A stretch of DNA of 64,000 bases, taken from positions 1-64,000 of the forward strand of contig CADEEA010000010.1 of NCBI GenBank assembly GCA_902826245.1. The letters run 5' to 3'. Under the pieces are notes generated by a model. That model ran no database searches, was not told where the DNA came from, and saw only the letters and a list, made by a program, of their open reading frames with translations. The position numbers and the translations under genes are program-made. Within the stretch, counting starts at the first letter, position 1. Every line of letters starts with the position of its first letter. The stretch comes from an uncultured Alphaproteobacteria bacterium. GTDB lineage: Bacteria; Pseudomonadota; Alphaproteobacteria; Caulobacterales; Aquidulcibacteraceae. Positions 10,920 to 35,966 of this stretch are shown here, piece by piece.

Positions 10920-13355
10920 TCAGCCCGGGATGGCTTTCGGCAGATAGGGCAATATCTGGGCTGCATCGTGCTCGCCGGAGCGACACAGGCGGGCGAAATC
11001 CGCCAGCGCGCCGGGCTTCGCGATCATATACCCCTGAACAGTATCGCATCCGAGCGTCGCGAGCACGGCAAGCGTGGCTTCATCCTCCACGCCCTCCGCC
11101 ACAACCGACATGCCGAGGCCATGGGCGAGATCGATTGTCGATTTGAGGATCAGGCGGTCCCGTTTGTTGGTGTTGAGGTCGCCAATGAGCGATTTATCGA
11201 GCTTGAGTTCGTCGGCCTCGATCTGTTTCAAATAGGCCAGGGAAGAGAGGCCCGATCCGTAATCGTCCACCGAGACCCGGATGCCCGCCTCCCGAAACGC
11301 GGCAATCGACGACATCGCCGCCAACGGATCGCCGATGATCGCGGTTTCAGTGATCTCGAAGCAGACACGGGCCCCGGCCCGTCGCACGGCGCCAGTGGCG
11401 AACTCGCAGAAATCCGCGTCCGCGAGCGACCGCCCTGACACATTGATGGAAATGATCTGGTCGACGCCTTCCGCCAACAACGCCGCCTGGTCACTAATGG
11501 CCTGCTCGATCGCCCAGCGGGTAAGCGCATCAATGCTGCCGGTTTCCTCCGCGACTTGAATGAATTGTTCGGGCGAGATGGGGCCGTGGATCGGGTGCCG
11601 CCAGCGCATCAGCGCCTCGGCGCCGACAATGTGGCGCCCACGCAGCGAAGCTTTCGCCTGATAAAGCAGAGTAAATTCTCCGCGCGAGAGCCCTACGCCT
11701 ACGTCTGATATGAGCGCCAACTGAACTTGCGGATCGGCGACGTTCTCGGGGGCGTAGCGCACATGACGCTGCCCCCGATGCCGCGCCTGATCGAGCGCTA
11801 GCGTAGTTTGTTCGAGCAGTTCATCCGCAGCGCCAACGCCTGCCGCGACGATAGCAGAGCCGGCGCGAACACTGACCTCGATCGCCTGACCGTCAACCAG
11901 CACGTTCGTGTCTAAGCTGTCGAGCGCGTCCGTGCACAGCCGGCGCGCGTCCTCCTCGCTTGCAGCGGTGAGCACAACGCCCAGGACTGACGTGGAGATG
12001 TGGAACACGCGTTTGTGGTGACAGCATGCCCCGATATTCCCAGACAGACCTCGGACAAGTTTGTTGGCGGCGCCGTAGCCAATGGCGCCGCGCAAGATTG
12101 CGAACCGGTCAATCCCGAAAACGACTGCAACGACGACGCCGTCTGTCGCCGACTGCACATCGAGGCAATTCTGCAATTTCTCCAGCATCGCCCTTCTATT
12201 GGGCAATTCCGTTTCCGGGTCGTGCAACGCCACGAACGACAAATGTTCCTCGCGCTGGCGTAATATTTCCGCAGCGCGGCGATTGAGTTCGCGATAGACG
12301 CTCATACCCGCGCACAAGGTTTGCGTCAGCAAGACGATGCCTAGGCTCGCGCTGATCGGCGCGACGGCCTGCAACGCCAATGGCCCAAGCAAAGCCACCG
12401 AGAGTACCGCGCCTTGCCTTATGAAAAGGCGGCGTAGATTAAGCCGACCGGCGCGCGGCCAGAGCACTACGAGCGCCAATAGCGCGAGGCCGATCGTCAA
12501 GACGCCGTTCGGCTCGAGCAAAGCGCGGCCCTGCACCAGGCTCTCATAGGCGAGCGCGTGAACGAACACACCCGACATGGAGGGTTGAATGGGGGTTGAG
12601 AATTCATCGCCGAGTTCAAGTGCGGTCGCGCCGATGAGAATGGCCTTGCCGCGCACGCGCTCCGCATCAAATGAGCCGCGATACACGTCCTCGAAGCTGA
12701 TCGTGGCGATCTCTTCGCTGCGTATGCCGTAATCGATCAGAAAGGGCGCGGTTTCGCCATAAGGCGCCCCGGCGAGCACCGCGGCCATGGCAGCATGATA
12801 ATGATCGCCGTGGCTATAGCCGCGCAGATAATTCCGCACGCGCCCGTCAGAATCGAGGCGAACATTGACGCTGCCGAGCACCGCGTTGCGAGAAAGAGAA
12901 GCGAGCGGCGCGTTTTCCTCGTCAGCCCCTGGCTGAATGAAGGTAGGCAGCACGATTGAGCCGGGGTCCGCGTCGATGGCGGCCCGAAGTGCGGAATCAT
13001 CGAACTCGTTCGACCGCGCGCCGAAATCGACGTCGAAGCCGATTATTGTCGCGCCTGCGTCGCGCAGGTTTCGGATTGCGGTAGCAAAGCGCTCGCGCGG
13101 CCATGGCCATTCGTCGGCTGCACGCAAACTCGTGGCGTCGATCGCGACCACGGCAATGGCGCCCGACGGCGCGCGCTCGATCATTTGCGCACGCCGCATC
13201 GCCAGATTGTCGTCCAGCGGCTTCAGCGCTCCGCTAACGTGCACTCCCGCAAGCAGAATACACGCGCACAGAAGTGTCGACGACCGCCGCGCGACGCTCA
13301 GCGCCGATGCGAGCGCGTTGTTCAGCGTTGCGGCCAAGGGCGCATGCGCACCCAT
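10920..13355 (-). CDS. CHASE2-degenerate GGDEF-EAL c-di-GMP phosphodiesterase
   Basis: 811 residues. After a membrane segment (about 24-44) comes a CHASE2 extracytoplasmic sensor (about 50-280: AVVAIDATSLRAADEWPWPR, then GFDVDFGARS and KAILIGATALELGDEFSTP), then about three membrane helices and a GGDEF-like domain. The usual GG(D/E)EF motif is replaced (STSVLGVV), so no cyclase activity is expected. The EAL domain keeps the catalytic set: EALMRW, ISINVSGRS, CFEITET, VSVDDYGSG, LKLDKSL, VVAEGVED and VQGYM. It should therefore hydrolyse c-di-GMP in response to an outside signal. The start at 13355 overlaps the fecR stop as TGATG; in-frame GTG 13379 and ATG 13364 are alternatives. Confidence 0.9.
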   Translation of the reverse strand: MGAHAPLAATLNNALASALSVARRSSTLLCACILLAGVHVSGALKPLDDNLAMRRAQMIERAPSGAIAVVAIDATSLRAADEWPWPRERFATAIRNLRDAGATIIGFDVDFGARSNEFDDSALRAAIDADPGSIVLPTFIQPGADEENAPLASLSRNAVLGSVNVRLDSDGRVRNYLRGYSHGDHYHAAMAAVLAGAPYGETAPFLIDYGIRSEEIATISFEDVYRGSFDAERVRGKAILIGATALELGDEFSTPIQPSMSGVFVHALAYESLVQGRALLEPNGVLTIGLALLALVVLWPRAGRLNLRRLFIRQGAVLSVALLGPLALQAVAPISASLGIVLLTQTLCAGMSVYRELNRRAAEILRQREEHLSFVALHDPETELPNRRAMLEKLQNCLDVQSATDGVVVAVVFGIDRFAILRGAIGYGAANKLVRGLSGNIGACCHHKRVFHISTSVLGVVLTAASEEDARRLCTDALDSLDTNVLVDGQAIEVSVRAGSAIVAAGVGAADELLEQTTLALDQARHRGQRHVRYAPENVADPQVQLALISDVGVGLSRGEFTLLYQAKASLRGRHIVGAEALMRWRHPIHGPISPEQFIQVAEETGSIDALTRWAIEQAISDQAALLAEGVDQIISINVSGRSLADADFCEFATGAVRRAGARVCFEITETAIIGDPLAAMSSIAAFREAGIRVSVDDYGSGLSSLAYLKQIEADELKLDKSLIGDLNTNKRDRLILKSTIDLAHGLGMSVVAEGVEDEATLAVLATLGCDTVQGYMIAKPGALADFARLCRSGEHDAAQILPYLPKAIPG

Positions 13356-14446
13356 CAGCCGCATGTGCGACCACGGCACGCCGGGAGAACAGGCGGGTCT
13401 CCAGCGTTGCCGTTGCCATTGCCGCCAGCATTGCCGTTGCCGCCAGCGTTGCCGCCGGCGTTGCCGTTGCCGCCAGCGTTGCCGTTGCCATTGCCGCCAG
13501 CGTTGCCGTTGCCGCCAGCGTTGCCGCCAGCGTTGCCTCCAACGTTGCCGCCAACGTTGCCGTTGCCGCCAGCATTACCGACAACAGCAGCATTGCCGCC
13601 GCCAGCATTGCCATTACTTCCAGCATTGCCATTGGCGCCGCTCAGCGATGCGAACACGCTGCGAACCGCCGCGACCGAGCGGCCAAACAAGCTCGACCCG
13701 CCGCCATTGGCGCTGGTTTCCGCGTTGACGCCTTGGCCGTTGCCGTTGGGAGAGGCGCCAAGCGCATTGTTCGCCGCCGCGACAGACCGCCCGCTGACCG
13801 GCCCGCTGCCGACGACGCCATCGGAAACCGCCGCGTAATCGAGCGCGGGCGCCGCTACGGCATGGGCGACATCGCCATCTGCCGGCGAAGTCATGGCGAT
13901 CGCACTCGGCGCGCCGCGCGCGACGCGGGCTGTAAGGCCGGCGGCGACATCATTCACCGCACTGCCTTCGTTAGCGCGCACTTCGACCAGCCCCTGCGCG
14001 ACATGCACCATGTCCTGCTCAGCGCCGGTGGAAACGGTAAAGGTCGTGCCTTTGACCACAGCGGCCAGCAGCGGCGTCTCCACGCGGAAATGCTGCGCTT
14101 CGCGGCGATCGACCTGAAACAGAAGCGAACCCAAATCCTGCAAGATGCGCGTCATGCCGTCATTGGAATCCGGCGCGATAGTCATGCGGCTGTTGGGCGT
14201 CATGACGATACGCTGAGCCCCATTTTGCAGAGTCGCGCGGCTGTCGGCGCCCGTGGTTACCGCTGTCCCGGCACGCAAGGTTTGATTAACCATGGCGTCG
14301 GCAACATCTTGGCCGGGCTGGCGCACACGCACCACGCCTTCTCGCGCAACGACCCGCCAGGAAGCTTGTTGAGCCGAAGCGGGGCTGGCGACGAACGCCA
14401 ATCCGCCGAGCGCAAAAGCACATGCTAACGCGAGGAATTTCCGCAT
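13355..14446 (-). CDS. FecR-domain protein with Gly/Asn-repeat tail
   Basis: 363 residues. A signal peptide (residues 1-25, ending ASAQQ) is followed by a FecR/LysM-like beta domain (about 30-150: VVAREGVVRVRQPG, then NGAQRIVMTPNSRMTIAPD and VETPLLAAVVKGTTFTV). A linker follows, then a low-complexity tail from about residue 270 built of GGN, GNA and GNG units. The last residues (PPVLPACRGRTCG) leave the repeat. Without a sigma-factor partner nearby it is not a classic FecR signalling protein. Its stop overlaps the start of the CHASE2-EAL gene (TGATG), and it is divergent from the TpsB gene, so the three form one locus. Confidence 0.9.
   Translation of the reverse strand: MRKFLALACAFALGGLAFVASPASAQQASWRVVAREGVVRVRQPGQDVADAMVNQTLRAGTAVTTGADSRATLQNGAQRIVMTPNSRMTIAPDSNDGMTRILQDLGSLLFQVDRREAQHFRVETPLLAAVVKGTTFTVSTGAEQDMVHVAQGLVEVRANEGSAVNDVAAGLTARVARGAPSAIAMTSPADGDVAHAVAAPALDYAAVSDGVVGSGPVSGRSVAAANNALGASPNGNGQGVNAETSANGGGSSLFGRSVAAVRSVFASLSGANGNAGSNGNAGGGNAAVVGNAGGNGNVGGNVGGNAGGNAGGNGNAGGNGNGNAGGNGNAGGNAGGNGNAGGNGNGNAGDPPVLPACRGRTCG
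13401..13638. repeat. Degenerate tandem repeat coding the FecR Gly/Asn tail
   Basis: Units of 6, 9 and 18 bases of the type GTTGCCGCCAGC repeat across the tract. On the coding strand they give Gly-Gly-Asn, Gly-Asn-Ala and Gly-Asn-Gly runs. Such DNA is prone to expansion and contraction, so tail length may vary among strains. Confidence 0.9.
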
Positions 14447-14612
14447 GGAATTGGATCCTTCTGGATGGTGCGGACAAAAATACGATCGCCTTCGCTAACA
14501 GATCAGCGCTAAGGGTTTGATAATTCATCTGCAAACACACAGGCCTTAATGCCTTGTTTGCCTTGCTTGCCGATAACCACACGCAGGTAAATCAGGTTGG
14601 CAGAACGCCTTC

Positions 14613-16247
14613 ATGCGTTGGGACAGGTCGGCACTCTCACAAATCGCGCATGCGTTCGCGTATGCGGGCGCGTTCGGCGCATGCTTTGCTGCACCTGGCC
14701 ACGCAGCAGCTGAAGCCCTTGCGCTGCGCGGAACCAGTGACGCCAAGCGCGAGGCGCCGGTTACCTGCACTGAAGGCGATGGCGCGTGCTTTACTCTGCT
14801 CGGCGTGACTGTCGACGGCGCGAGCGCCTTCACCCAAGCCGAGCTCTCTGGCGATTATCTGCCTTATCTGACCCGAGACGTCAGCGTGGGCGACCTCGCG
14901 CGCATCGCTGGCGCGATCACCACCCGCTATCGTCAAGCAGGCTATTTCCTCTCCCGCGCCATCGTGCCGCCTCAGGACAGCGCAAGCGGCGTCGCGCGGA
15001 TTGTCGTGCTCGAGGGGCGCATCGCCGAGATCGTTGTCGAAGGCGAAGGCCAGACCCAAGTACGCCACTATTTGCGTGGGCTCGATGCACAGCCGATCGC
15101 CCATCTCCCTGAGCTTGACCGGCGTCTGGCTCTTGCGAACGACGTGCCCGGGCTCAGCGTGCGCTCGCGCATCGAGCCCGATCCCAACGATCCCACTCGC
15201 CATCGCCTTGTCGTCAGCACCGAATTCGACGCCATCGACGGCGTCGCTTCGATCGACAATCGCGGCAGCGAGGACGCCGGGCCCTTGCAAGCGTATGGCC
15301 GCGTGCGCGGAAATTCGGTGTTGCTTGAGGGCGACCAGATCTCTCTGGGTTTGTTTACGACCCCGGAATCGCCTGAGGACTTCACGCATGTCGAGGGCGC
15401 CTATTCCGTAGCGCTCGAAGACGGCGCCCGCGCCACGGCGACACTTGCACTATCGCGCGCTCGCGACGGCCATGACATGACCTCGCCCGATATCGGCGGC
15501 GACGTTCAAGCTTTGTCGGTGCGCTACGAATATCCGCTGCACCGCGGACGCGCCGCCGGACTTTGGCTCGGCGCCGCGTTCGACCTGCACCATGCCGAGA
15601 ACGATTGGGCGAGCGGGGGCGGATATGCCGATGAGTTGCGGGTCGCGCGTTTCAGCTTGCGCGGCTTTCTCGACGAAGGCGGGCGCGCCAGCACGGCGTT
15701 TGCGCGCGCTTCGTTTGGCCTGGATTTTCTGGGCGCCTCGGGACGCTCCCTTGTGCGCCGCTCGCGATATGATGCGGACGCCGAGTTCGTCGCCCTGAAC
15801 TTTCACGCCTCGCATTATCGCGACCTGAGCCGCTATGTGGGCGTGTATGCTTCTATCGACGGCCAATGGGCCGACCGGCCGCTGCTTCTGTCGGAGGAAT
15901 TCGCCGTCGGCGGCCTGCCCTATGGCCGCGCCTACAATCCCGGCGAAATTTCCGGCGACCACGGCCTCGCCGGCCTGGTTGAGCTGCGCGCGGGTTACGA
16001 CCCGGAGCTCGGCGCGATCTCGTTCCTGCAAGGCTATCTGTTCTACGACACCGCTCAAGTGTGGAATTTCAACACCGCACCCGATGCCGACGAACTCTCC
16101 TTGTCGTCAGCGGGAGCGGGAGTGCGGGTCAATGTCGAGGATTGGCTGGTTTTTCGCCTGGAAACAGCGCGGCCGTTGACGCGCACGCCCTATGAGGAAG
16201 GCAACAAGGATTGGCGGCAGTTCTTCTCGCTCTCGGCCGCTTATTGA
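14613..16247 (+). CDS. ShlB/FhaC/HecB-family TpsB transporter
   Basis: 544 residues. A signal peptide (about 1-33) is followed by a POTRA domain (about 60-135: CFTLLGVTVDGASAFTQAEL, then YRQAGYFLSRAIVPPQ and RIVVLEGRIAEIVVEGEG) and a 16-strand-type outer-membrane barrel (about 200-544) ending in LSAAY. The barrel segment FAVGGLPYGRAYNPGEISGD matches the conserved extracellular-loop motif of the family. TpsB proteins export large TpsA adhesins or hemolysins. No TpsA gene is in the window, so the substrate is elsewhere. It is divergent from fecR with a 166-bp shared upstream region. Confidence 0.92.
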   Translation: MRWDRSALSQIAHAFAYAGAFGACFAAPGHAAAEALALRGTSDAKREAPVTCTEGDGACFTLLGVTVDGASAFTQAELSGDYLPYLTRDVSVGDLARIAGAITTRYRQAGYFLSRAIVPPQDSASGVARIVVLEGRIAEIVVEGEGQTQVRHYLRGLDAQPIAHLPELDRRLALANDVPGLSVRSRIEPDPNDPTRHRLVVSTEFDAIDGVASIDNRGSEDAGPLQAYGRVRGNSVLLEGDQISLGLFTTPESPEDFTHVEGAYSVALEDGARATATLALSRARDGHDMTSPDIGGDVQALSVRYEYPLHRGRAAGLWLGAAFDLHHAENDWASGGGYADELRVARFSLRGFLDEGGRASTAFARASFGLDFLGASGRSLVRRSRYDADAEFVALNFHASHYRDLSRYVGVYASIDGQWADRPLLLSEEFAVGGLPYGRAYNPGEISGDHGLAGLVELRAGYDPELGAISFLQGYLFYDTAQVWNFNTAPDADELSLSSAGAGVRVNVEDWLVFRLETARPLTRTPYEEGNKDWRQFFSLSAAY

Positions 16248-26414: not shown

Positions 26415-26600
26415 GGCGTACAAAACTACATCAGCGAGGGTGAAATTGAAACCAGCGCCGCCGCTGCAAATACCTCGACCGCCAGCATCCCCGCCGCCAC
26501 AGCGGCCCGGCATGGTGCGGCCTTCGACAGGCTCAGGCTGACGCGGACGGGCGCCATGCTTACTGAGGATGGCGTCACGCGAAGCGCGAAGCCGCGCCAA

Positions 26601-26915
26601 TCACGCTTCCGCGGCGAATTGCTCCAGGGCGGCGAGCGCCTCCGCCAGCTCAACGCGCAGATGGTCGAGCGCTTCCGCACACGCAGCGTCCGGCGCGCCC
26701 TCAACCGCCTCGCAGGCGAGCGCCAGCGTCGCCAGGCCGATGCCGCGCGCCGAGCCTTTCAGCTTGTGCGCCGCAGCGCGCCATTCTGCGTCCGAGGCGA
26801 TCCCATCGCCCCAGTTCGCCGCTTGGGCGCGAAACAGCTCGACGATCTCAAGCTGCAGCGCGCGATCGTCGCCGGTCATGTGACGAAAATGCGCGCGGTC
26901 GAGCACGCCGCTCAC
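26601..26915 (-). CDS. Stand-alone Hpt phosphotransfer protein
   Basis: 104 residues from a GTG that overlaps the upstream NnrU stop (GTGA). The Hpt histidine is His50 in WRAAAHKLKGSARGIGL, within a four-helix bundle. N-terminal LDRAHFRHMTGDDRAL and LQLEIVELFRAQ are typical of Hpt proteins that start with a phosphate-acceptor bundle. No hybrid kinase or response regulator is adjacent, so its partners lie elsewhere. The in-frame region upstream of the GTG belongs to NnrU DNA. Confidence 0.85.
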   Translation of the reverse strand: MSGVLDRAHFRHMTGDDRALQLEIVELFRAQAANWGDGIASDAEWRAAAHKLKGSARGIGLATLALACEAVEGAPDAACAEALDHLRVELAEALAALEQFAAEA

Positions 26916-27598
26916 AGCGGCGTCCAAGCGCCATGAAATAGCGCAACCAATCCCGCGATTGCAGCGCCTACCGCCAATCGCCACGCGGACTCAGATAGGA
27001 TAAAGGAATTGCGGCCCTGCACGATTGCGGCGAATGGCACGTTCGAAGTCGCCGCTTCAAACCGCGCCCATGCTTCGGGATTGCGGGCGCGCCCTTTGCG
27101 ATCGATTGAGCGCGCACCAAACAACGCCATCGCGCCCAGCGCGCCGAACAACATCAGCGCAAAGCGCTCCCCGTTGGCGAGCAGATGCCCGACGCTCCAG
27201 AGGCCCACACCCCAAAGGAAAGGATGACGCGTCACGCGAAGCAGGCCCTTGGCGGGCGCCTCCCGCTTCAGGGTCGATTCAAATCCAGCATAGGTAGGAC
27301 CGGGCGAAAGCACGCCGGCAATTGCAAACGCAACGCCTACAAACGCGATCCCCTCGCCGATCCAGCGGGCGACGTTTCCAGGCGCCCACAAGACGTCGTT
27401 CAGCGGATCAAACAGGTCGCGCCGCATCGCGCCATAGGATTGGATCAGCCACGCCAGCAATCCCAATGACGCGACGGAAAATACCGTGCGGTAAGCGCCC
27501 TCACCGATGCGCGACACGATACGCCCACGCAATCCTGTGGCCGAAACGCCAATATGAAGCAGCACAAACGCCGCTAGAGCCGCAGTGAAACTATCCAT
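26912..27598 (-). CDS. NnrU-family membrane protein
   Basis: 228 residues with about six membrane segments. The block GLLRVTRHPFLWGVGLWSVG near residue 120 is the shared RHPxxW motif of NnrU and related isoprenylcysteine-methyltransferase-like membrane proteins. NnrU was first linked to denitrification gene clusters, but most relatives, as here, are elsewhere. The catalytic role is unknown. It is coupled by a 4-bp overlap to the Hpt gene. tRNA-Lys lies 25 bp upstream on the same strand. Confidence 0.88.
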   Translation of the reverse strand: MDSFTAALAAFVLLHIGVSATGLRGRIVSRIGEGAYRTVFSVASLGLLAWLIQSYGAMRRDLFDPLNDVLWAPGNVARWIGEGIAFVGVAFAIAGVLSPGPTYAGFESTLKREAPAKGLLRVTRHPFLWGVGLWSVGHLLANGERFALMLFGALGAMALFGARSIDRKGRARNPEAWARFEAATSNVPFAAIVQGRNSFILSESAWRLAVGAAIAGLVALFHGAWTPL

Positions 27599-27623
27599 AG
27601 GCCGCCGCCTGAGCGATACGCTG

Positions 27624-27699
<76 letters not shown>

Positions 27700-27759
27700 C
27701 ACGCGACTCGCGCCCGCTGCACATAGGGCGATTGCAGGCGTTCGTCTAGAAGTCGTCGA

Positions 27760-30700
27760 TCAGAACTTGAACCGCAACGCGGCATTGATGCTGTGGCGCT
27801 CTATGCGATCGCCAAACTCGCCCTCATAGCTCAGACTGACCGTAGAGAAGCCATTTGTCGCGTCGATACCGAGACCAACGAGCGGCGCGCCTCCCGTATC
27901 AACATCATCGCTCAACACAAAATCCGATCCCCCGCCAACGAAGCGGAAGGTGCGGTCGGCGGCCTCTTCCAGGGCGTTGCTACGGTAGCCCGCATAGAGG
28001 CGAGGCGCCACAACGCTGCCGCCGACATTGAACCTGCTGCTCAACTCAAGTCCCGCTTCGGCCCATAGCCTTTGGGAAAGGCTCTCGTCGGCTTCGTAAT
28101 TCAACCCGACGCCGCCGCCTTCTTCAGCGTAACCTTGTTCCTGCAGCGCCACATAGGTCAGGCTCGCCTGCGGCGTCACAATCATCCAATCAGCAAGGCG
28201 CAGCGGCGCTGACGCCCGCACAGCGGCATGCCCCTCATACGCCCACCATTTGGCGGTCGAGAGCGTGCTGAAACTGTCGCCGATTTCAACAAACCTCCGC
28301 GACTGCATCTGACCGCCGCCCAATCCCGCGACAAGATCGAGGTCGATCGGACCGAGCGCCGTCCCTAGATAGGCGTTGAGCTGCCCGAACGTTGAGGCGA
28401 CTTCACCGTCGCGCCGCCCTTCATCTTTCGCTTCGGATGTCAGAAAGGAAGCAGACAAACCAAACAGGGCGCCATTGTTCAGCGGCCCGTCGATACCCAA
28501 CGCGATGCCGAAACCTTGCCCGCCATATTCCTGACCGTTCGTCGTCTCGGGCGTGCGGCTGACACTGTAACCGATCTCTTGGGCCCAGACCGATACCTCG
28601 TCGATATCTTGCAGGCGCACCGACGCCAGCCGATTTGAACTGGCCGCTTGCGACTGCTGAATTGCAGTCGCCGCAAGCTCCGTGGAAGCGCTGGCGTAAC
28701 TCGGCATCAAGTCTTGATAGGCTTCCTCAAACTCGACTTGGCTGTCGATTTCCGCCAATGCCGCGGCAGCTAATGCGTTCGGACGCAGCGCATCAATCAA
28801 GGGTGCGAAGGCCGCTGCCTGGTTGGCGGTCAGATTGAGTTGCCCCGGGGTCTTCAATAAATAATCGGCCACCAGGGAATTCGCATCACCTGGATCGATG
28901 GCCACTGTAAGGTTGTAAAGGAAGGGCGAGCCCGCTCCGTTGATGGTGCGCTCAACGTTGACGCCGCCAATAAGTCCGCCATTGGCTGTCAATAGTACGT
29001 GCGATCCCGACACCGGCAATCCCTGCGGAACGACGGGCGTTACCAGGGCGCCGGGAGCAAACGTGACGCTGCCGCTAGCGACAATCCTGGAAGACTGGCC
29101 AACAGTTTCCGACAGCTGCAACGAGAGCACCGAATCTGTTCCGAAACTGGCCGACGTGATGTTTGTCGTACCACCTTGGAGCCCGAGCGTGCCGTCGGTT
29201 ACGTTGATCGACAATTGGCCATCGGCATCCGTGAGAACACCACCATAGGTCGCGCCGTTGTTGATATTCAGCGCGTCTGCACCAGCGCCGAATGACAGAT
29301 CGCCATCGATCAGGCCGGCGAACAGGTTCACGACATCCGCCCCCGAACCCAGGCGCACATCTCCGACGATCTGCACAGCAGGACGCGCGTTCACGTCGTT
29401 GTCCACAGCGTCATCGTCGGTGAAAGGGGTGTCTCCGACCAGGTTCAGATTGTCGGCGATCTGATTCAGAGTGACAGCGATTGTGGAGGCCGAGGCATCG
29501 ATGGCCACCGCCGAGCCGGTCACGGGTGGCGCGGGAACGTTGTCGTTAGGGTCGGCGTCCGTCGCTGAAACACTCGCCGTGATCGAGCCGGAATTTGTAA
29601 TTGTCGCGAGCGTGTTCGACTGGTCGCGCACCGCGTAAGCATTGCCAGCCTCTCCAAACAATTGCGCGACGATCGTGCCGCTATTGTTGAAAGCCGGAAC
29701 GTTGGCGCCAGACCCGATGAGCACGGCCGTCGCATTTTTTGAGGTTTCCGCGGTAACGCTTGCGACCAGGCGGCGGCGCGAGAGAATGAGCGGCGCGGTG
29801 GCGTCAACGCCAATCCGGACCCCATATGCATTGCCTTCGATCGCGCCCGCAATGACATCGCCCGCCAGAGCAATCCCTGCCGACGTCGTGACGGTGGCGC
29901 CTGTGCCAGAGCCCGCCACCGAGATCGCCGTAGCATCGAATCCGTCATAAATGCCGAACCCGGACACGGTTCCGCGAACGTAAAGCCCATATGACGACGT
30001 GGTTGGGCCCAGCACCAAGTTCGCCGACGGGTCGGCCTGGATCATCAACGCCGGCGCGCTTCCAAACACCGTAATATTTGCGGAGAGATCGTCGTTGGTA
30101 TCCGCGCCATCATCGAGCACGCCGTCGCCGTCATCGTCGAGGTCGTCTTCGACCCCAACGCCTTCTATCGTTATGCCGCCGGCGACGCTAAAGCGAACAT
30201 CCACCGCCGATCCGCCTTGCAGAAGGTCATCACCCGCTTCAAGCGTGGAGGTGACCGAAGGACGTACTGTGCTGTGGTAACCAGTCACGTTCCAGCCGCC
30301 GTTGATGCGAAGCCTGCCGCCAATAGGGGCGCCAACGATCAAGCCGCTCGAACCTTGTCCCTCGATAGTTATCGCTCCACGCGCCAGGACATCGCCAGAC
30401 ACGCCTCCGCCAGCCCCCCCCAAAATGGAAATGGCCGAAGAATTGTCGCCAGTCACCCTGATGCTGCCGGTGCTGCTGAGATCGCCAGTCAGCGGCGCAT
30501 CCAAACGGATGCCCCCGGAATTGGCGCCTTCGATAGTGATCGTCCCAGCATTGGTGACGCCGCCGTTGAATGTCGCAACGCCGCCCAAGCGGATGCCATA
30601 GCGGTTCGATCCAGTCGCCCAGGCGCCATCAAGGTCGCCGTCATTATCGCCATCGGCGAGCACGTAGGATTCCAGCAGAGAAATAGAGCCCGTGTTCGAT

Positions 30701-31014
30701 ACCGCTTGCGGCCCCGCAAAACCGCCTTGCATTAAAATGCCGGTGGTGTTGTTCGCGTCGTTCGACGCAATGAGCCCGGAATTGGTGACGTTGTTGTTCG
30801 AGTTGATTGTCACCGCGGCTTGACCAGTCGTGACCGTAATCGATCCCCCGCTGGCTATCGTGACATTGCCGGGCGAAACCCCATCCGGTGCAGACGTCGT
30901 GAGCGGGTTGGTCGTCGCTGTTGTGACGTTGACATCGTTTGCTTCGGCATTGCCTGCCGAGACGCCCGCTATGGCCGCGGCGAGACCCGCCAGCTGAACC
31001 GTCTTGATACGCAT
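27760..31014 (-). CDS. Autotransporter (type Va) adhesin-like protein
   Basis: 1084 residues. A signal peptide (1-25) leads to a long passenger rich in Gly, Asn, Thr and Ser with beta-helix-like repeats (NSGLIAS, NTGSISL, NAGTITIEG; about 30-720) and to Asp-rich segments: DGDNDGDLDG near residue 121 and DDLDDDGDGVLDDGADTNDD near residue 290. These resemble calcium-binding loops. The C-terminal autotransporter barrel (about 800-1084) opens with SVWAQEIGYSVSRTPETT and ends ALRFKF, with a final Phe. It should be surface exposed. An upstream gap of 257 bp separates it from the CHASE4-GGDEF-EAL gene on the same strand. Confidence 0.92.
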   Translation of the reverse strand: MRIKTVQLAGLAAAIAGVSAGNAEANDVNVTTATTNPLTTSAPDGVSPGNVTIASGGSITVTTGQAAVTINSNNNVTNSGLIASNDANNTTGILMQGGFAGPQAVSNTGSISLLESYVLADGDNDGDLDGAWATGSNRYGIRLGGVATFNGGVTNAGTITIEGANSGGIRLDAPLTGDLSSTGSIRVTGDNSSAISILGGAGGGVSGDVLARGAITIEGQGSSGLIVGAPIGGRLRINGGWNVTGYHSTVRPSVTSTLEAGDDLLQGGSAVDVRFSVAGGITIEGVGVEDDLDDDGDGVLDDGADTNDDLSANITVFGSAPALMIQADPSANLVLGPTTSSYGLYVRGTVSGFGIYDGFDATAISVAGSGTGATVTTSAGIALAGDVIAGAIEGNAYGVRIGVDATAPLILSRRRLVASVTAETSKNATAVLIGSGANVPAFNNSGTIVAQLFGEAGNAYAVRDQSNTLATITNSGSITASVSATDADPNDNVPAPPVTGSAVAIDASASTIAVTLNQIADNLNLVGDTPFTDDDAVDNDVNARPAVQIVGDVRLGSGADVVNLFAGLIDGDLSFGAGADALNINNGATYGGVLTDADGQLSINVTDGTLGLQGGTTNITSASFGTDSVLSLQLSETVGQSSRIVASGSVTFAPGALVTPVVPQGLPVSGSHVLLTANGGLIGGVNVERTINGAGSPFLYNLTVAIDPGDANSLVADYLLKTPGQLNLTANQAAAFAPLIDALRPNALAAAALAEIDSQVEFEEAYQDLMPSYASASTELAATAIQQSQAASSNRLASVRLQDIDEVSVWAQEIGYSVSRTPETTNGQEYGGQGFGIALGIDGPLNNGALFGLSASFLTSEAKDEGRRDGEVASTFGQLNAYLGTALGPIDLDLVAGLGGGQMQSRRFVEIGDSFSTLSTAKWWAYEGHAAVRASAPLRLADWMIVTPQASLTYVALQEQGYAEEGGGVGLNYEADESLSQRLWAEAGLELSSRFNVGGSVVAPRLYAGYRSNALEEAADRTFRFVGGGSDFVLSDDVDTGGAPLVGLGIDATNGFSTVSLSYEGEFGDRIERHSINAALRFKF

Positions 31015-31271
31015 GCCGGCTCCGTCCCCTTCCCTGAGTGGGCAGCGGGCGGCCCCTCAGACCTGCCCGGACGCGCGGGGTCTGACCCCCGACGCACGTC
31101 GTTTGGCATGCCGGCTTTGGGAATTTTTGTCCAGTATGCGCCACATCAAGGCGAGGCGCTTGGCGGCGCGACAATGTGGCTAAAATCAGACACAACGCAC
31201 TGACGCGCGTAGGACGCGAAATGTCGCCCTGGGGAGAACCCGAAAGGGAGTCTCGACCGGCGCTCCCAAGC

Positions 31272-33557
31272 CTAGCCCAGGTTGCGCGTCAATGGTTTGG
31301 CTAGGCTCGCCTGGGGCGCATTGAACGCCTGCAGCAGGGCGTCGACATCATCTGCCGGCACCGCGCGCGAGAAATAGAAGCCCTGGAGTTCGCTTACCCC
31401 CACAAGGCGCATCGCCTGCGCTTCCGCCTCCGTCTCCACACCCTCGGCGACGATGTCCATGCCCAGGCCGCGCCCGAGCGTGATCACCGATTGGATGATA
31501 GTCATGGAACGGCGACGTTCATCGACGCCGGTGACGAAGGCGCGATCGATCTTGATCTTGTCGAAGCGGAAATCGCAGAGGTAGCGCAGACTGGAGTATC
31601 CGGTGCCGAAATCGTCAAGCGCCACCTTGAAGCCAAGGTCGCGGATTTCCGACAGCACTTGCCGATTGCGCTCGCTCGATTCCATCATCACGCCCTCGGT
31701 GACTTCGAGGATGATGCGATCGGGGTCGATGTCGTGCTCCTCCAGCAGGCGCGCCAACAGACCGACGAGATCCATGTGACGGAATTGGACCGGCGAAAGG
31801 TTGATCGCGACGTCGACCATCGGCCAACGTTTGGCTTCGGCAAAGGCACGCGCGAGAACAAAGGCGCCCAGCGCCGGCATGAGGCCCGCCTCTTCCGCGA
31901 TCGGCACGAACACGCCCGGCGAGATGTCGCCTCGCACCGGATGGCGCCAGCGCAACAGCGCTTCCAAACCGGTAATGCGATTGTTAGCGCACGAGATCAG
32001 CGGCTGGTAATAGAGCGTCAGCTCTTGCCGATTGATGGCGTCGACAAGCTCCATCTCGATCTCGCGGCGCTTCTCGATTTCCGCGGACATATCTGCGGAG
32101 AAGAAGATCGACCGATTTCTGCCGCGTTCCTTGGCCCTGTAGAGCGCGATGTCGGCGTTGCGCATTAAGTCTTGCGGCGTGTCGCCATGCTCAGGCGCGC
32201 GCGCGAGGCCGATGGACGCCGTCATCCGTAGATTCTGGCCGTACAGGTCGAAATTGTGCTCAAACGCCCGCGCCAGGCGGTCGCCGAGCTGCAGAGCCGA
32301 TTCCTCGTCGGCGGCGCGGTGGAGGACCGCGAATTCGTCACCGCCGAAGCGCGCCAGGAAATCACCAGGAATCATGATCGCGCGCAGACGCTCGGCGACC
32401 GCCGTGATCAGCGCGTCGCCGGCCTGGTGGCCTAACGTGTCGTTGACGTCCTTGAAGCGGTCGACGTCAACATAGGCGACCACCGTGAAGCGGCCATTTC
32501 TGGTTTGCACCATGGCGTCGAGCGCTTCCTGCAGACGTTCGACAAAATGGTGCCGGTTTGGCAGCCCCGAAAGCGCGTCGTGCAGAGCCTGATGACGCGA
32601 TTGCTCCTCTCGGTCAGCGAGTTCGACGGAGGCGCGCTTCAAGCGTCTGATCATCAGCCAGGTCAGCATCCCTGCTCCGAGTACGCCGAGAGCAACCAGC
32701 GGCAGAATGAAGAGAAGCAGCGACTGCCCTGGCTTGCGTGGCGTCCAGCTCAGATAACCGATTGGCGTTCCGTCGTCAGCGAGCAGCGGCGTCGACACCG
32801 CGCCATTGGCCGCCGCATTGTCTGCTGTGAGCGTGAGGTCTGGCATCAGCAGCGTGCGCCCCACCGCGGCCATGAAATCCTCGTCCATACGCAGGACCGA
32901 GACCATCAGGTGAGGCTCGCCTTTCAGCACGGAAGCGTCCACGCTCGGCACGATCGCCATCGCGCTAACCACGGCGGGCGCTCCATCGACCCGCAGGATG
33001 TGGCCGGACCATCCCGCGTTGCTTGCGCCCAACAGATTTGAGTAACGTTGCTGGTCGGCGGTAAAGGCGCCGTCCCGCACTCTAAGCCCGGAACCCGCAC
33101 CGCGGGCGGCGCGCACTACCTGTTCGAGAACATGACTACGGCGGCTGTAGGCCGCGGCTGGGTTACGCTGCAACTCGCCGCCAAGAGTGGCGTAGATCGG
33201 CTTGTCGTTGCTATCGACAAGGTAAATCTCGTCGTGGCCGTAGGTTTCGTAAAAATAGAACCCGATATTGGCGCCCACCCACTCCAGATCGAGCGGTCGG
33301 CGTTGAGCGTTGACCACAGCGTCGTCCCACCAGGCGATCGCCTTCTCCTCGTTAAGGACCCGGCTCACCGCCTGATCGAGCGCGTTTTCAACCAATTGAT
33401 GCTCGCGCTTCACCGCGCCACGGTTGGCCGACCACCCCGCATAGGCGACGATAACCAGAAGCAAACTCGCGAACAGCACGAGGGCGCCGCCGATCATGGC
33501 GGTCAGCCTGCTGAGATCATTCTTATAATGAACCGTCTTTTCGCTTGAAGAGCTCAT
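31272..33557 (-). CDS. CHASE4-GGDEF-EAL c-di-GMP enzyme
   Basis: 761 residues. Membrane segments (about 20-42 and 280-302) flank an extracytoplasmic CHASE4 sensor (EEKAIAWWDDAVVNAQRR near residue 75, then IGFYFYETYGHDEIYLVDS). The GGDEF domain has ARFGGDEFAVLHRA, intact, with RNADIALYRAKERGRN. The EAL domain is intact: GLEALLRWRHPVRGDISPG, VAINLSPVQFR, IILEVTEGVMMES, VALDDFGTGYSSL, KIKIDRAFV and DIVAEGVET. It could make and break c-di-GMP in response to an outside signal. Upstream lies an AT-rich gap of 305 bp. Confidence 0.93.
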   Translation of the reverse strand: MSSSSEKTVHYKNDLSRLTAMIGGALVLFASLLLVIVAYAGWSANRGAVKREHQLVENALDQAVSRVLNEEKAIAWWDDAVVNAQRRPLDLEWVGANIGFYFYETYGHDEIYLVDSNDKPIYATLGGELQRNPAAAYSRRSHVLEQVVRAARGAGSGLRVRDGAFTADQQRYSNLLGASNAGWSGHILRVDGAPAVVSAMAIVPSVDASVLKGEPHLMVSVLRMDEDFMAAVGRTLLMPDLTLTADNAAANGAVSTPLLADDGTPIGYLSWTPRKPGQSLLLFILPLVALGVLGAGMLTWLMIRRLKRASVELADREEQSRHQALHDALSGLPNRHHFVERLQEALDAMVQTRNGRFTVVAYVDVDRFKDVNDTLGHQAGDALITAVAERLRAIMIPGDFLARFGGDEFAVLHRAADEESALQLGDRLARAFEHNFDLYGQNLRMTASIGLARAPEHGDTPQDLMRNADIALYRAKERGRNRSIFFSADMSAEIEKRREIEMELVDAINRQELTLYYQPLISCANNRITGLEALLRWRHPVRGDISPGVFVPIAEEAGLMPALGAFVLARAFAEAKRWPMVDVAINLSPVQFRHMDLVGLLARLLEEHDIDPDRIILEVTEGVMMESSERNRQVLSEIRDLGFKVALDDFGTGYSSLRYLCDFRFDKIKIDRAFVTGVDERRRSMTIIQSVITLGRGLGMDIVAEGVETEAEAQAMRLVGVSELQGFYFSRAVPADDVDALLQAFNAPQASLAKPLTRNLG

Positions 33558-33862
33558 AGCTTAAACCAAGCTTAAATGAAAATTACAAACGCATCGGCGA
33601 CAATAAACCACACAATCCGAACATAATGTTACGAGGAGCAAATATTCGTTCCTCAAATACAGTACTAATTCTGGATTAAGCATACTCTCGCTCGCCGCTG
33701 CGTTGAGGCGACAATCTGCAATTAATCTTCGTAAATGCGCATTTAGGCTTGAAATTTTGCCATTTACGCCTTATTAGGGAATTTGCACGCACCGGCTCGC
33801 CCTAAGAGGCGCATGTATTCGGGGGGCGAGCTGCAAGTATAGTTAACGGAGCTGGGTGACCC
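33558..33862. other. AT-rich intergenic region, no gene seen
   Basis: 305 bp with lower G+C than its surroundings, lying between the divergent CHASE4-GGDEF-EAL gene and an acetyltransferase-like gene. It should hold both promoters. An imperfect inverted repeat (GAGGAGCAAAT and ATTCGTTCCTC, about 33633-33654) is the only symmetric site I see. I find no reading frame of protein character. Confidence 0.6.
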
Positions 33863-34606
33863 ATGAAGCGGTACGCCGTGAAGACACGCGCCGATAGTCC
33901 CGCGCTAAAGCGCGCCGCTGTCGCAATTGAGCAATCCGCCTGGAACGCGTTGGGGTACCTCAATTTCACAAGAGCCCATTTCCAGCACTATGATGAATTG
34001 CTGGAACGCTACGCCGACTTCCAAATCTGCATCGTCGACGAAGCAACCGGCTATCCGGTTGCGATCGGCTGCTGCATGCCTTTCTTCTGCGCCGACCCTG
34101 AAAATCTTCCGGCGGAAGGCTGGGATTGGATCGTCGATTCCGCCCACCGCGCCGAAGTTGCGCCAAACATGCTCGGCGGCCTGGGAATTTCGGTGCCCCA
34201 GGTACACCGCTCCAAGGGTCTGGCGCGGGTCGTCATTCAGGCCATGCGCGACCTAGCTCAGCAATGCGGATTCGAGGGCGTGCTGATCCCCGTGCGCCCG
34301 ACCGCGAAATCCCGGCACCCGGATGTTTCGATGGCGGAGTATGTCGGTTGGACCGACGATCGCGGCCGCGCCTATGATCCATGGCTACGGAGCCACCTTG
34401 CGTCCGGCGGCCGCATCGTCGGGGAGGCCGCCCGTTCGATGGTGGTGGAAGAGCCCATCGCTTTCTGGGAGACCTGGGCGGGCCGAAATTTTGAACACTC
34501 GGGCGACTATGTGGTCGAGGGCGCGCTTAACCCTGTGTCCATTGATGTTGCGCGCGGTGTTGGCCGCTACGTCGAGCCGAACGTGTGGTTCGCCTACGCA
34601 GCCTGA
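33863..34606 (+). CDS. GNAT-like N-acyltransferase, hypothetical
   Basis: 247 residues. The core looks like a GNAT fold: AIGCCMPFFCADPENLPAEG with long inserts, then GLGISVPQVHRSKGLARVVI and IQAMRDLAQQCGFEGVLIPV, where the HRSKGLA stretch could be the acetyl-CoA pyrophosphate loop. The C-terminal part (WETWAGRNFEHSGDYVVEGA) is unusual. No substrate can be proposed. The ATG at 33863 has a weak upstream GGAG (about 33848). Confidence 0.6.
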   Translation: MKRYAVKTRADSPALKRAAVAIEQSAWNALGYLNFTRAHFQHYDELLERYADFQICIVDEATGYPVAIGCCMPFFCADPENLPAEGWDWIVDSAHRAEVAPNMLGGLGISVPQVHRSKGLARVVIQAMRDLAQQCGFEGVLIPVRPTAKSRHPDVSMAEYVGWTDDRGRAYDPWLRSHLASGGRIVGEAARSMVVEEPIAFWETWAGRNFEHSGDYVVEGALNPVSIDVARGVGRYVEPNVWFAYAA

Positions 34607-34608
34607 CG

Positions 34609-35709
34609 TCAGCGGCGTTCCTCCACCGGGTAATAAACCTCGGTGCGCTCTACAGTCTCGCCGCCCGTTGGGCTCGCCGTGCGGGAGCGAACCACTTCCC
34701 AGGGAATGACCCCCTCGGGCTGCTCATCGCAACTCGGCGCGTGCCCGGGGCGCGCGTAGGGCAGCTCGCGATGCGCGAGAAGATAAGCGCAGGCGCGGAG
34801 ATAAGTCTGACCGAGCTGCGAGCGCGGCCCCACGTGCACAAACCGGATCACCGAACCGCCCGGCGTCTCCCCGGGACGCACGCCGCCTGAAAAGCGGCTG
34901 GGCTCTGGACCTGAATAGGGATAGCCGACAATCCAAGAGCGGTGCCGGCTAGCCACTTGCGCCGGCGGGAAGATCCGCACCACGGCGCCATCGGGCGAGA
35001 GATTGCTTTCCGCGAAGTACGCGTTCAAACGCGAAAGCCCGTCACTCTCAGCAGCATCGCGCTCGGCTACAGTTTGTTCGGCGGTGACATCCACAAACAG
35101 GATCGGCTGGGCCGCAATTTGTTCGCGGCTAAGCTCCATGCCTTCGAAATCAACGTCCGGCAATTGCTCAGCCAGCGTCTGCAGGCGCGCCAGGCCGTTG
35201 TCCAATTCCCGCTCGACCGCGCCGCGCAGCACGACGTTGACGAAATAGCGGCAGAGCACGTTGGTGACGCCGGAAGGGCATTCAGCGGTGACTGACCAAG
35301 CGACCGCGGTTGAATTTCCCTCTGCCCGCTCCAGCTTCATGTTGGAGTGCAGGCTAGCGCGATCGCGCAGCACGATATCGCTTTCGATGGCTTCGTTTTC
35401 AGTCGATTCCTGGATAGTCATCCGTCCGGAGCCGACACGTCGGGATTTGCTGGCCCAGCGCATTTCCTGGCCGCGGCCCGGCCCGTCTCCTGTGAAACTG
35501 TAATCGGCGTCGGGATCCATCGCGTAGAAGGGCGACCATTCCTTCGCCACGCGAAGATCGTTGGCGAGCGCAAAGATTATGGCGCGGGGGCGATCGATCG
35601 CGGCGCTGCGGGTAACCGAAAGCGAGTTCGACAAGAAAAACTGGCCGACGAGAAAGAGCACGGCGGCCAAAGCCGCCAACCCCGCCAAAAGCCACAGAAA
35701 CCACCGCAT
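34609..35709 (-). CDS. SRPBCC domain fused to an effector-binding-like domain
   Basis: 366 residues. An N-terminal membrane segment (about 3-27) leads to an SRPBCC/polyketide-cyclase-like fold (about 35-185: RSAAIDRPRAIIFALANDLR, then WSPFYAMDPDADYSFTGDGP and GQEMRWASKSRRVGSGRMT). The second half (about 200-340) resembles GyrI-like/effector-binding beta-alpha folds (PEPSRFSGGVRPGETPGGSV, then TYLRACAYLLAHRELPYA). A role in binding a small molecule at the membrane is inferred. The two-domain fusion with an anchor is known from other alphaproteobacteria, function unknown. Confidence 0.7.
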   Translation of the reverse strand: MRWFLWLLAGLAALAAVLFLVGQFFLSNSLSVTRSAAIDRPRAIIFALANDLRVAKEWSPFYAMDPDADYSFTGDGPGRGQEMRWASKSRRVGSGRMTIQESTENEAIESDIVLRDRASLHSNMKLERAEGNSTAVAWSVTAECPSGVTNVLCRYFVNVVLRGAVERELDNGLARLQTLAEQLPDVDFEGMELSREQIAAQPILFVDVTAEQTVAERDAAESDGLSRLNAYFAESNLSPDGAVVRIFPPAQVASRHRSWIVGYPYSGPEPSRFSGGVRPGETPGGSVIRFVHVGPRSQLGQTYLRACAYLLAHRELPYARPGHAPSCDEQPEGVIPWEVVRSRTASPTGGETVERTEVYYPVEERR

Positions 35710-35851
35710 TCAGGCATCCCCCTCCGCGGGCCAACAAGCTCCAGGGCGTATCACCAGCGCCATTGCTGCGCCATGCGCGACCTTACGGGCTTGCATTGTT
35801 CGCGATCTGCTCGCGTCAGGAGCGAGCAATCCAAGCCGACCGGGCGCCCGC

Positions 35852-35957
35852 CTCGAGCCTGTTCCGATCCGATGGGATCGGATCGGGGCTCTAGATTCTT
35901 GTTTGGTCGCATTTTCTTGCGCCGAACCGGCATCCATTTCGCCGGAAAATGCTCTAG
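35852..35957. repeat. 106-bp CTAGAGCATTTTCC dispersed element, copy 2
   Basis: In the opposite orientation to copy 1 (23333-23438): it starts CTCGAGCCTGTTCCGATCC and ends CGGAAAATGCTCTAG. Both are 106 bp. The internal palindrome is GATCCGATGGGATCGGATC in this copy, with loop changes relative to copy 1. It lies just downstream of chorismate mutase (same end as its stop) without entering the gene. Confidence 0.9.
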
Positions 35958-35966
35958 CACGGCCGC

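What the first reader, a model, noticed from the sequence alone, without database searches (positions are those of the whole stretch)
27760..33557. A second type V secretion gene beside a c-di-GMP protein
The autotransporter (27760-31014) lies directly downstream of CHASE4-GGDEF-EAL (31272-33557) on the same strand. With the CHASE2-EAL/TpsB locus at 11-16 kb, this is the second pairing of a type V secretion gene with a sensory c-di-GMP enzyme in one window. Recurrent pairing could mean local control of surface adhesins by c-di-GMP.
Basis: inference. Interest (0 to 1): 0.55.

Follow-up and report, generated by a model that had tools for sequence, protein, structure and literature searches.

The report
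Autotransporter beside c-di-GMP enzyme, genus-specific
A surface-display protein gene lies next to a membrane sensor enzyme for the messenger c-di-GMP in nearly all examined genomes of one genus of Caulobacter relatives, but the two appear to have separate control elements, and the supposed second case nearby belongs to a different recurring module in which c-di-GMP is only one of two outputs.

Summary
Observation confirmed: a type Va autotransporter (27760-31014, -) lies 257 bp downstream of a CHASE4-GGDEF-EAL gene (31272-33557, -). The adjacency is old. Of 30 genomes of the window's genus, 27 hold both genes: neighbours in 24, apart in 2, cut by a contig end in 1. Outside the genus no pairing was seen: in a sister genus the enzyme keeps its divergent GNAT-fold neighbour while the autotransporter sits elsewhere (1 clear case), and 57 loci of other families have other neighbours. 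The autotransporter has its own conserved 30-bp upstream block, retained where it is detached; the enzyme/GNAT gap carries CtrA-type 8-mers instead. So the linkage probably arose once; co-transcription or local c-di-GMP control is not shown.

The "second pair" is another thing: TpsB divergent from FecR-CHASE2-effector. In a 200-genome sample of the order, 21 of 79 TpsB genes lie within 5 kb of CHASE2 (0.3 expected), all divergent with FecR between. The effector is GGDEF-EAL in 7, histidine kinase in 13, undetermined in 1. None of 18 other autotransporters had an EAL gene within 10 kb on its contig. A general type V/c-di-GMP coupling is not supported; the recurring TpsB partners are FecR and CHASE2.

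The parts
27760..31014 (-). Type Va autotransporter, 1084 aa: beta-helix-like passenger, helix, C-terminal barrel
   Evidence: Pfam PF03797; AlphaFold model pLDDT 87.4; Foldseek barrel matches EstA, AaaA, EspP, NalP, BrkA
31104..31133 (-). Conserved 30-bp block TGGACAAA-N8-AAGNCGGCATGCCA upstream of the autotransporter; candidate own promoter or leader element
   Evidence: One match (up to 2 mismatches) in 11 of 21 genomes, all 11 in the genus and at the autotransporter locus; none in G010 (diverged copy) or G002 (no autotransporter); alignment of gaps; kept in detached loci
31015..31271 (-). 257-bp gap between enzyme stop and autotransporter ATG
31272..33557 (-). CHASE4-GGDEF-EAL, 761 aa; GGDEF and EAL motifs intact, no consistent RxxD inhibitory site
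   Evidence: motif survey of 12 sequences including the window's
33561..33575 (-). TTAA-N7-TTAA (CtrA full-site pattern) just upstream of the enzyme ATG; in the window only, among 22 gaps compared, so at chance level (1 seen, 0.66 expected)
33839..33846 (-). TTAACTAT, one mismatch from the CtrA 8-mer TTAACCAT that 16 of 22 compared gaps carry
33863..34606 (+). GNAT-fold protein, 247 aa, divergent partner of the enzyme gene
   Evidence: AlphaFold pLDDT 87.6; Foldseek best SxtA and CurA GNAT-like domains; Acetyltransf_1 below cut-off on the G009 orthologue
27624..27699 (-). tRNA-Lys (CTT) downstream of the autotransporter
10920..13379 (-). CHASE2-(degenerate GGDEF)-EAL
13355..14446 (-). FecR-domain protein with a G/A/N-rich tail; its ORF as called overlaps the CHASE2 ORF by 25 bp
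14613..16247 (+). TpsB (POTRA_2 + ShlB), divergent from FecR-CHASE2

Best explanation
The locus is a lineage-specific but stably inherited neighbourhood: a GNAT-fold gene and a CHASE4-GGDEF-EAL gene share a divergent promoter region, and an autotransporter that is usually single-copy in Caulobacterales came to lie behind the enzyme gene in the ancestor of this genus, with an upstream element of its own. Likely working: the enzyme sits in the inner membrane, its CHASE4 domain reads a periplasmic ligand, and its GGDEF and EAL domains adjust c-di-GMP; its expression is probably tied to the CtrA cell-cycle circuit. The autotransporter is transcribed mainly from its own promoter and displays a long beta-helical rod on the surface. 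Shown: domains, intact motifs, adjacency and its distribution, separate conserved upstream elements. Inferred: membrane topology, CtrA control, own promoter, surface function, single origin. Whether the enzyme controls the autotransporter is open; I put it at about one in three.
For: Adjacency in 24 of 26 testable genus genomes with both genes; aligned ends are 256-371 bp apart in 22 of them and 1.1 and 1.6 kb in the other two. G009 carries a methyltransferase ORF in the gap. The two exceptions (G012, G212) keep both genes and the 30-bp block in front of the autotransporter. The block occurs at no other place in 21 genomes at up to 2 mismatches. GNAT and the enzyme gene are divergent neighbours in 3 of 3 sister-genus loci, while the autotransporter is elsewhere in G149. 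TTAACCAT: 20 copies against 0.4 expected in 22 GNAT-enzyme gaps; 7 of the 8 intergenic copies in seven 60-64 kb regions fall in this gap, and none in 19 autotransporter upstream gaps. Intact catalytic motifs in 12 of 12 enzyme sequences.
Against: No transcript data; a 257-bp gap does not exclude read-through. The window's own gap lacks an exact TTAACCAT, as do 5 of the other 21, and the full CtrA site pattern is not enriched (1 seen, 0.66 expected). The 30-bp block is not a recognised promoter and could be a leader or a protein-binding site; it was not found in the two sister-genus autotransporter loci. G212 is a fragmented draft (57% complete). Neighbour retention around the locus is high anyway (781 of 1158, 67%), so conserved order alone is weak proof of selection: at least 18 of 20 at that rate has nominal P = 0.02, at least 8 of 9 has P = 0.15, and neither allows for relatedness.
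Confidence: 0.72

Rival explanations
1. Functional module: the enzyme locally sets c-di-GMP and this controls expression or surface retention of the autotransporter.
For: Adjacency kept in 24 of 26 testable genomes at 50-81% autotransporter identity, above the 67% neighbour baseline. Within the 60 family genomes the autotransporter never occurs without the enzyme gene (29 of 29 genomes with it; the same 2 of 14 genera hold both). In the window's lineage the REC-GGDEF-EAL part of the relatives' cluster lies on another contig while the enzyme and autotransporter stayed together.
Against: Separate conserved upstream elements. Enzyme gene without autotransporter in G002, G215 and G097. Autotransporter without this enzyme gene beside it in 57 of 57 loci of other lineages. 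Two genomes with the genes apart keep both. Shared genera reflect few events.
Confidence: 0.33
2. Mere inherited synteny: the autotransporter landed there by chance and stayed because rearrangement is slow.
For: In other lineages the same autotransporter recurrently sits beside genes with no plausible link: glnB-glnA and a gyrase-B-type gene (Robiginitomaculum/Maricaulis), a kinase, Porin_O_P and a solute-binding protein (Caulobacter), GT4 and Band_7 (Brevundimonas and relatives) (domain names from one representative each). 67% neighbour retention around the locus.
Against: Autotransporter, enzyme and GNAT genes are present in all nine regions compared with the window, whereas the other flank changes (next gene kept beside the autotransporter in 4 of the 7 regions that hold it).
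Confidence: 0.4
3. Type V secretion genes as a class are preferentially placed beside c-di-GMP genes in this clade.
For: Two cases in one window; a TpsB gene with an EAL gene about 9 kb away in G017 and G018.
Against: 0 of 18 other autotransporters with an EAL gene within 10 kb on the contig. The TpsB partner is FecR-CHASE2 with a kinase output in 13 of 20.
Confidence: 0.07

Closest known systems
CdrA/CdrB of Pseudomonas aeruginosa (c-di-GMP-controlled two-partner adhesin; PMC2847200, abstract and outline seen)
   Different: CdrAB is a two-gene TPS operon shown to respond to c-di-GMP; no adjacent enzyme is named in that abstract; here regulation is untested and the protein is type Va
Aeromonas intimin/invasin operon with a GGDEF gene (Ahy1; PMC3008723, passage seen)
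   Same: A type V gene next to a c-di-GMP enzyme gene, with the same suggestion of biofilm control
   Different: Int/Inv-type barrel in a proposed four-gene operon; here a separate upstream element and a dual GGDEF-EAL enzyme
IsmP and other CHASE4 c-di-GMP proteins of P. aeruginosa (PMC10904736 and PMC13277305, abstracts and outlines seen)
   Same: CHASE4 periplasmic sensing coupled to c-di-GMP enzymes; iron, heme and likely copper reported as ligands
   Different: Ligand unknown here; no autotransporter link in those abstracts
BiofilmReg operon of Burkholderia (RR, LysM-FecR protein, CHASE2 kinase; PMC5192318, passages seen)
   Same: FecR-domain gene followed by a CHASE2 sensor protein
   Different: The paper has 0 occurrences of hemagglutinin or autotransporter; here TpsB is divergent and the output can be GGDEF-EAL

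Membership tests
Type Va autotransporter | C-terminal Autotransporter barrel over the curated cut-off | tested here: met
   PF03797 105 bits against cut-off 26; Foldseek EstA, EspP, NalP, BrkA barrels
Type Va autotransporter | Passenger and barrel in one polypeptide, beta-rich passenger, helix before the barrel | tested here: met
   AlphaFold model
Type Va autotransporter | Secretion and surface exposure | not testable with these tools
   needs experiment
Adhesin | Binding to a surface, cell or matrix component | not testable with these tools
   no passenger family match in Pfam or NCBIfam at E 0.001
CHASE4-GGDEF-EAL one-component c-di-GMP enzyme | CHASE4, GGDEF and EAL domains with catalytic motifs | tested here: met
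CHASE4-GGDEF-EAL one-component c-di-GMP enzyme | Measured cyclase or phosphodiesterase activity and ligand | not testable with these tools
   needs biochemistry
LapD-type c-di-GMP receptor controlling a surface adhesin | Match to the NCBIfam LapD model over its cut-off; degenerate GGDEF and EAL (the latter recalled) | tested here: not met
   176 bits against cut-off 1020; both motifs intact in 12 of 12
Operon of enzyme and autotransporter | Genes never separated, nothing inserted | tested here: not met
   apart in G012 and G212, ORF inserted in G009; stop-to-start gaps about 204-296 bp in 18 of 19 loci
Operon of enzyme and autotransporter | One shared transcript | not testable with these tools
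   needs RNA data; a separate conserved upstream block speaks against it
CtrA regulon | CtrA 8-mer or full site upstream | tested here: inconclusive
   TTAACCAT in 16 of 22 gaps, only a one-mismatch copy plus one TTAA-N7-TTAA in the window; the full-site pattern is not enriched; binding untested

The most novel reading that the evidence does not exclude
The TpsB / FecR / CHASE2 triad is a self-contained envelope-sensing module of Caulobacterales: a TpsB pore exports or positions a FecR-domain protein with a long repetitive Gly/Asn-rich or beta-roll tail (none of the 12 FecR proteins examined has a TPS domain), and the CHASE2 protein reads its state across the inner membrane and passes it to an interchangeable output, either c-di-GMP (EAL) or a histidine kinase. 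The window's 11-16 kb locus would be the c-di-GMP version.
Probability: 0.27. Interest if true: 0.7.

Novelty: new member of a known kind. Interest (0 to 1): 0.4.

Why it matters
It turns a two-case hunch into a tested statement: the autotransporter/c-di-GMP adjacency looks like one retained event with separate control elements, so it should not be read as an operon. It also shows that a recurring partner of TpsB secretion in this order is FecR-CHASE2, with swappable outputs, which is a sharper and testable hypothesis. If the autotransporter is controlled by the neighbouring enzyme after all, a cultivable Caulobacterales relative would be a clean system to show local c-di-GMP action on a type Va protein.

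Tried and rejected
One search loaded only the window (wrong file layout); repeated. One search took the wrong start of the enzyme gene because a paralogous hit was included; repeated as (whose output was cut in the middle). One search used a pattern with one N too few and found nothing; corrected. A regular expression for a further block (TTCCCTAATAA...GTAAA, seen by eye in the alignment upstream of the enzyme gene) matched nothing and was not pursued, so that block rests on the alignment alone. Apparent TGGACAA matches about 287-415 bp upstream of the autotransporter in ten outgroup loci look like coding sequence of the upstream gene (a reading of the letters; a glnA-type gene is the upstream neighbour there) and were rejected as the same element. 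The sigma-70 and terminator scan showed no clear excess over shuffles (1 against 1.9 and 9 against 7.5). No Rfam family at gathering threshold besides the tRNA in 26500-36000. The idea that pairing is general for autotransporters was tested and rejected. A LapD-type receptor was rejected. A full CtrA site as the conserved element was rejected (1 against 0.66).

Limits of the counts: PF03797 matches under 60 bits were not counted as autotransporters. Several autotransporters lie near contig ends, so 10 kb was not always readable. GGDEF-only genes were not surveyed. One CHASE2 match below cut-off (G120) was left out (126 of 127 used), while one TpsB match below cut-off (G130:C89) was kept. Short ORFs without homologues were dropped, whose ten regions are six of 60 kb, the window and three of 13-18 kb. 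One search kept the best 80 of 174 relatives. Flanks of outgroup loci were often cut by contig ends; three of the 57 show a GGDEF-type match 7-9 kb away. Sister-genus G205 has contig ends at both genes (about 1 kb readable upstream of the autotransporter, no enzyme there). In the triads only FecR proteins (12 of 21) were tested for a TPS domain, not every ORF around; three candidate TpsA proteins at other TpsB genes were tested and all three have it, a fourth (in L169) was not tested.
Full report
What is there. The gap is 257 bp. A tRNA-Lys gene follows the autotransporter. On the other side a 247-aa gene (33863-34606, +) is divergent from the enzyme gene; it has no Pfam match at E 0.001, but its model has a GNAT-like fold, nearest to SxtA and CurA GNAT-like domains. 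The autotransporter model shows a beta-rich passenger, a helix and a barrel, and the barrel matches EstA, AaaA, EspP, NalP and BrkA. A profile of the family finds one solved structure, the EstA barrel, and no passenger relative (E up to 0.01). A D-rich loop (residues about 121-130) is nearly invariant in 32 sequences and looks like a calcium loop (inference). The enzyme keeps GGDEF, EAL and the other EAL residues checked in 12 of 12 sequences, without a consistent RxxD site; which residues are catalytic is recalled knowledge.

Where the pair occurs. A scan of named genomes with the autotransporter alignment kept 80 of 174 relatives, most titled as Caulobacterales lineages and some titled only Alphaproteobacteria, Proteobacteria, Rhodobacterales or Hydrogenophilaceae. 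The enzyme gene is directly upstream in 18 of them, titled Hyphomonadaceae, Terricaulis, Caulobacterales, Alphaproteobacteria or Proteobacteria. It is not seen upstream in L071 (about 3 kb readable) and L088 (about 1 kb), is untestable in L082, L086 and L100, and is absent beside the autotransporter in all 57 remaining loci, as far as their flanks reach. In the family search (60 genomes, 14 genera; E up to 1e-60 and 1e-100) autotransporter and enzyme orthologues occur in the same two genera only: autotransporter in 27 of 30 genus genomes and 2 of 4 of the sister genus, enzyme in 29 of 30 and 3 of 4. In the genus 27 genomes hold both; 24 have them on one contig and strand, 22 of these with aligned ends 256-371 bp apart, G009 with 1.1 kb and G217 with 1.6 kb. 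Stop-to-start gaps are about 204-296 bp in 18 of 19 loci and 995 bp in L090. G009 carries a methyltransferase ORF in the gap. G218 is cut by a contig end in the gap. G012 and G212 hold the two genes on different contigs, with more than 2 kb readable upstream of the autotransporter; their blocks are identical over the shared letters, so I take them as one lineage (inference). Several enzyme or autotransporter genes in draft genomes appear split or interrupted (G001, G192, G217, G212). Contig lengths show that L090, titled Terricaulis sp., is G217. A 2025 Nature Communications paper places Terricaulis and Vitreimonas in a proposed family Aquidulcibacteraceae (PMC12700997, passages seen).

Older state. 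In the sister genus the GNAT-enzyme divergent pair is present in 3 of 3 loci (G149, G205, G097). The autotransporter is elsewhere in G149 (9 kb readable upstream), unresolved in G205 (contig ends) and not found in G097. So the enzyme-GNAT pair seems the older unit and the autotransporter joined it in this genus. Beyond the GNAT gene, 17 of the 18 paired named loci carry a REC protein and a REC-GGDEF-EAL protein, and 15 also a hybrid kinase, partial in some. L072, closest to the window, lacks them, as does the window; their counterpart in G000 is on contig C1.

Control elements. Aligned gaps show a conserved block about 119-175 bp before the autotransporter ATG in an otherwise poorly alignable gap; 18 of 19 loci match one expression and L084 carries a close variant. 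The block also precedes the autotransporter in L071 and G212, where the enzyme gene is elsewhere, and in L082, where this cannot be seen. It was not found in the two sister-genus autotransporter loci. Across 21 genomes the pattern with up to two mismatches occurs once in each of 11 genus genomes, at the autotransporter, and nowhere else; the other two genus genomes are G002 (no autotransporter) and G010 (diverged copy). The GNAT-enzyme gap instead carries TTAACCAT, 20 copies over 16 of 22 gaps against 0.4 expected from first-order resampling. Of 8 intergenic copies in seven 60-64 kb regions, 7 lie in that gap (coordinates compared), and the 19 autotransporter gaps have none. TTAACCAT and TTAA-N7-TTAA are described as CtrA sites (PMC6180460 and PMC3692519, passages seen). 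The window has only a one-mismatch copy and one TTAA-N7-TTAA; the latter pattern is at chance level over the 22 gaps (1 against 0.66). Orthologous gaps are not independent. Two distinct conserved elements still speak for separate promoters, not one operon.

Is the linkage more than inertia? In ten regions around the locus (six of 60 kb, the window, three of 13-18 kb), a gene with an orthologue in the compared region keeps its right-hand neighbour in 781 of 1158 comparisons, 67%. From the window's view enzyme-autotransporter is kept strictly in 8 of 9 and enzyme-GNAT in 9 of 9, while the autotransporter's other neighbour is beside it in 4 of the 7 regions that hold it. Nominal chances at 67% are 0.15 for at least 8 of 9 and 0.02 for at least 18 of 20, without correction for relatedness. 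Against function stands the fact that in other lineages the same autotransporter recurrently lies beside glnB-glnA and a gyrase-B-type gene, beside a kinase, Porin_O_P and a solute-binding protein, or beside GT4 and Band_7 genes (57 loci; domains named from one representative each).

The claimed recurrence. In 21 genomes, 18 other autotransporter matches of at least 60 bits (14 of other families, 4 orthologues outside the genus) have no EAL gene within 10 kb on their contig; the genus orthologue is adjacent in 11 of 12 (in G003 the passenger half). The TpsB case is different. In a 200-genome sample of the order there are 79 TpsB matches in 54 genomes and 127 CHASE2 matches in 80 genomes. With 126 CHASE2 matches used, 21 TpsB genes have one within 5 kb, all divergent; 0.30 would be expected at random, assuming 3.5 Mb genomes. 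In all 21 a FecR-type gene, recognised by similarity, lies between. The CHASE2 protein aligns essentially full length with a GGDEF-EAL version in 7 (G000, G008, G010, G197, G078, G087, G134). It is a histidine kinase in 13 (G020, G161, G051, G136, G056, G085, G114, G089, G037, G122, G132, G042, G034), and is cut by a contig end in G204. Pfam confirmed five of these directly (G000, G008, G010, G020, G034); the others rest on alignment. All 12 FecR proteins put to Pfam carry a FecR domain; their N termini look like signal peptides, and their C-terminal halves are mostly G/N/A/D-rich (one, L175, holds undetermined letters). Five carry beta-roll repeats and one pentapeptide repeats; none has a TPS domain. 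By contrast the three candidate neighbours tested at other TpsB genes all have a TPS domain (L162, L167, L170). FecR followed by a CHASE2 kinase is in print as a biofilm operon (PMC5192318, passages seen). A search for any two of CHASE2, FecR and two-partner secretion listed 7 papers, none by its title or abstract start about the triad, and CHASE2 with filamentous hemagglutinin listed none (open-licence library only).

Literature on the main pair. Searches combining autotransporter with c-di-GMP and Caulobacter, CHASE4/GGDEF/EAL, diguanylate cyclase and adhesin, or gene neighbourhood listed 15 of 16, 15 of 51, 8 of 8 and 10 of 17 papers; none of the listed titles or abstract starts reports this locus. 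Precedents are an Aeromonas intimin-type operon with a GGDEF gene (PMC3008723, passage) and the c-di-GMP-regulated TPS adhesin CdrA (PMC2847200, abstract). CHASE4 domains of c-di-GMP proteins are reported to bind iron, heme or likely copper (PMC10904736 and PMC13277305, abstracts).

Verdict. The adjacency is real, conserved and genus-specific in what was searched. It is best read as two neighbouring, separately promoted genes with one origin. Control of the autotransporter by the enzyme remains possible (about 0.33). The general claim of recurrent type V/c-di-GMP pairing is not supported; the recurrence seen is TpsB with FecR-CHASE2.

Noticed in passing
window 10920-16247; L163, L164, L172, L174-L190: Divergent TpsB / FecR / CHASE2-effector triad, 21 of 79 TpsB in a 200-genome sample of the order, with output either GGDEF-EAL or histidine kinase and repetitive Gly/Asn-rich FecR proteins.
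   Followed up: partly
L080, L082, L091, L092, L100 downstream of the autotransporter: A TPR-GT41 (O-GlcNAc-transferase-like) gene and one or more copies of an unidentified 800-aa family lie just downstream of the autotransporter; possible glycosylation of the passenger.
   Followed up: no
window 33863-34606 against L072:3436-4191: The GNAT genes fall in two sequence classes: the window copy is 77-83% identical to L073, L074 and L083 but 65% to L072, although L072's enzyme and autotransporter are 80-82% identical to the window's: possible gene replacement.
   Followed up: no
L097, L104, L108, L140 and similar Caulobacter loci: In Caulobacter the same autotransporter lies between a histidine kinase and a Porin_O_P / solute-binding-protein cluster that looks like a phosphate locus (the phosphate reading is inference).
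   Followed up: no
L060/L173 (G009) between the enzyme and autotransporter genes: An NNMT/PNMT-type methyltransferase ORF is inserted in the gap.
   Followed up: no
L168 and L170 (G017, G018): Long multi-domain EAL proteins lie about 9 kb from a TpsB gene in two other families; in G018 a TPS-domain protein gene lies in between.
   Followed up: no
G002 contig C50 (L052): The enzyme gene is open but no autotransporter was found at 98% completeness; a 2OG-Fe(II) oxygenase gene lies next to the enzyme gene instead.
   Followed up: no
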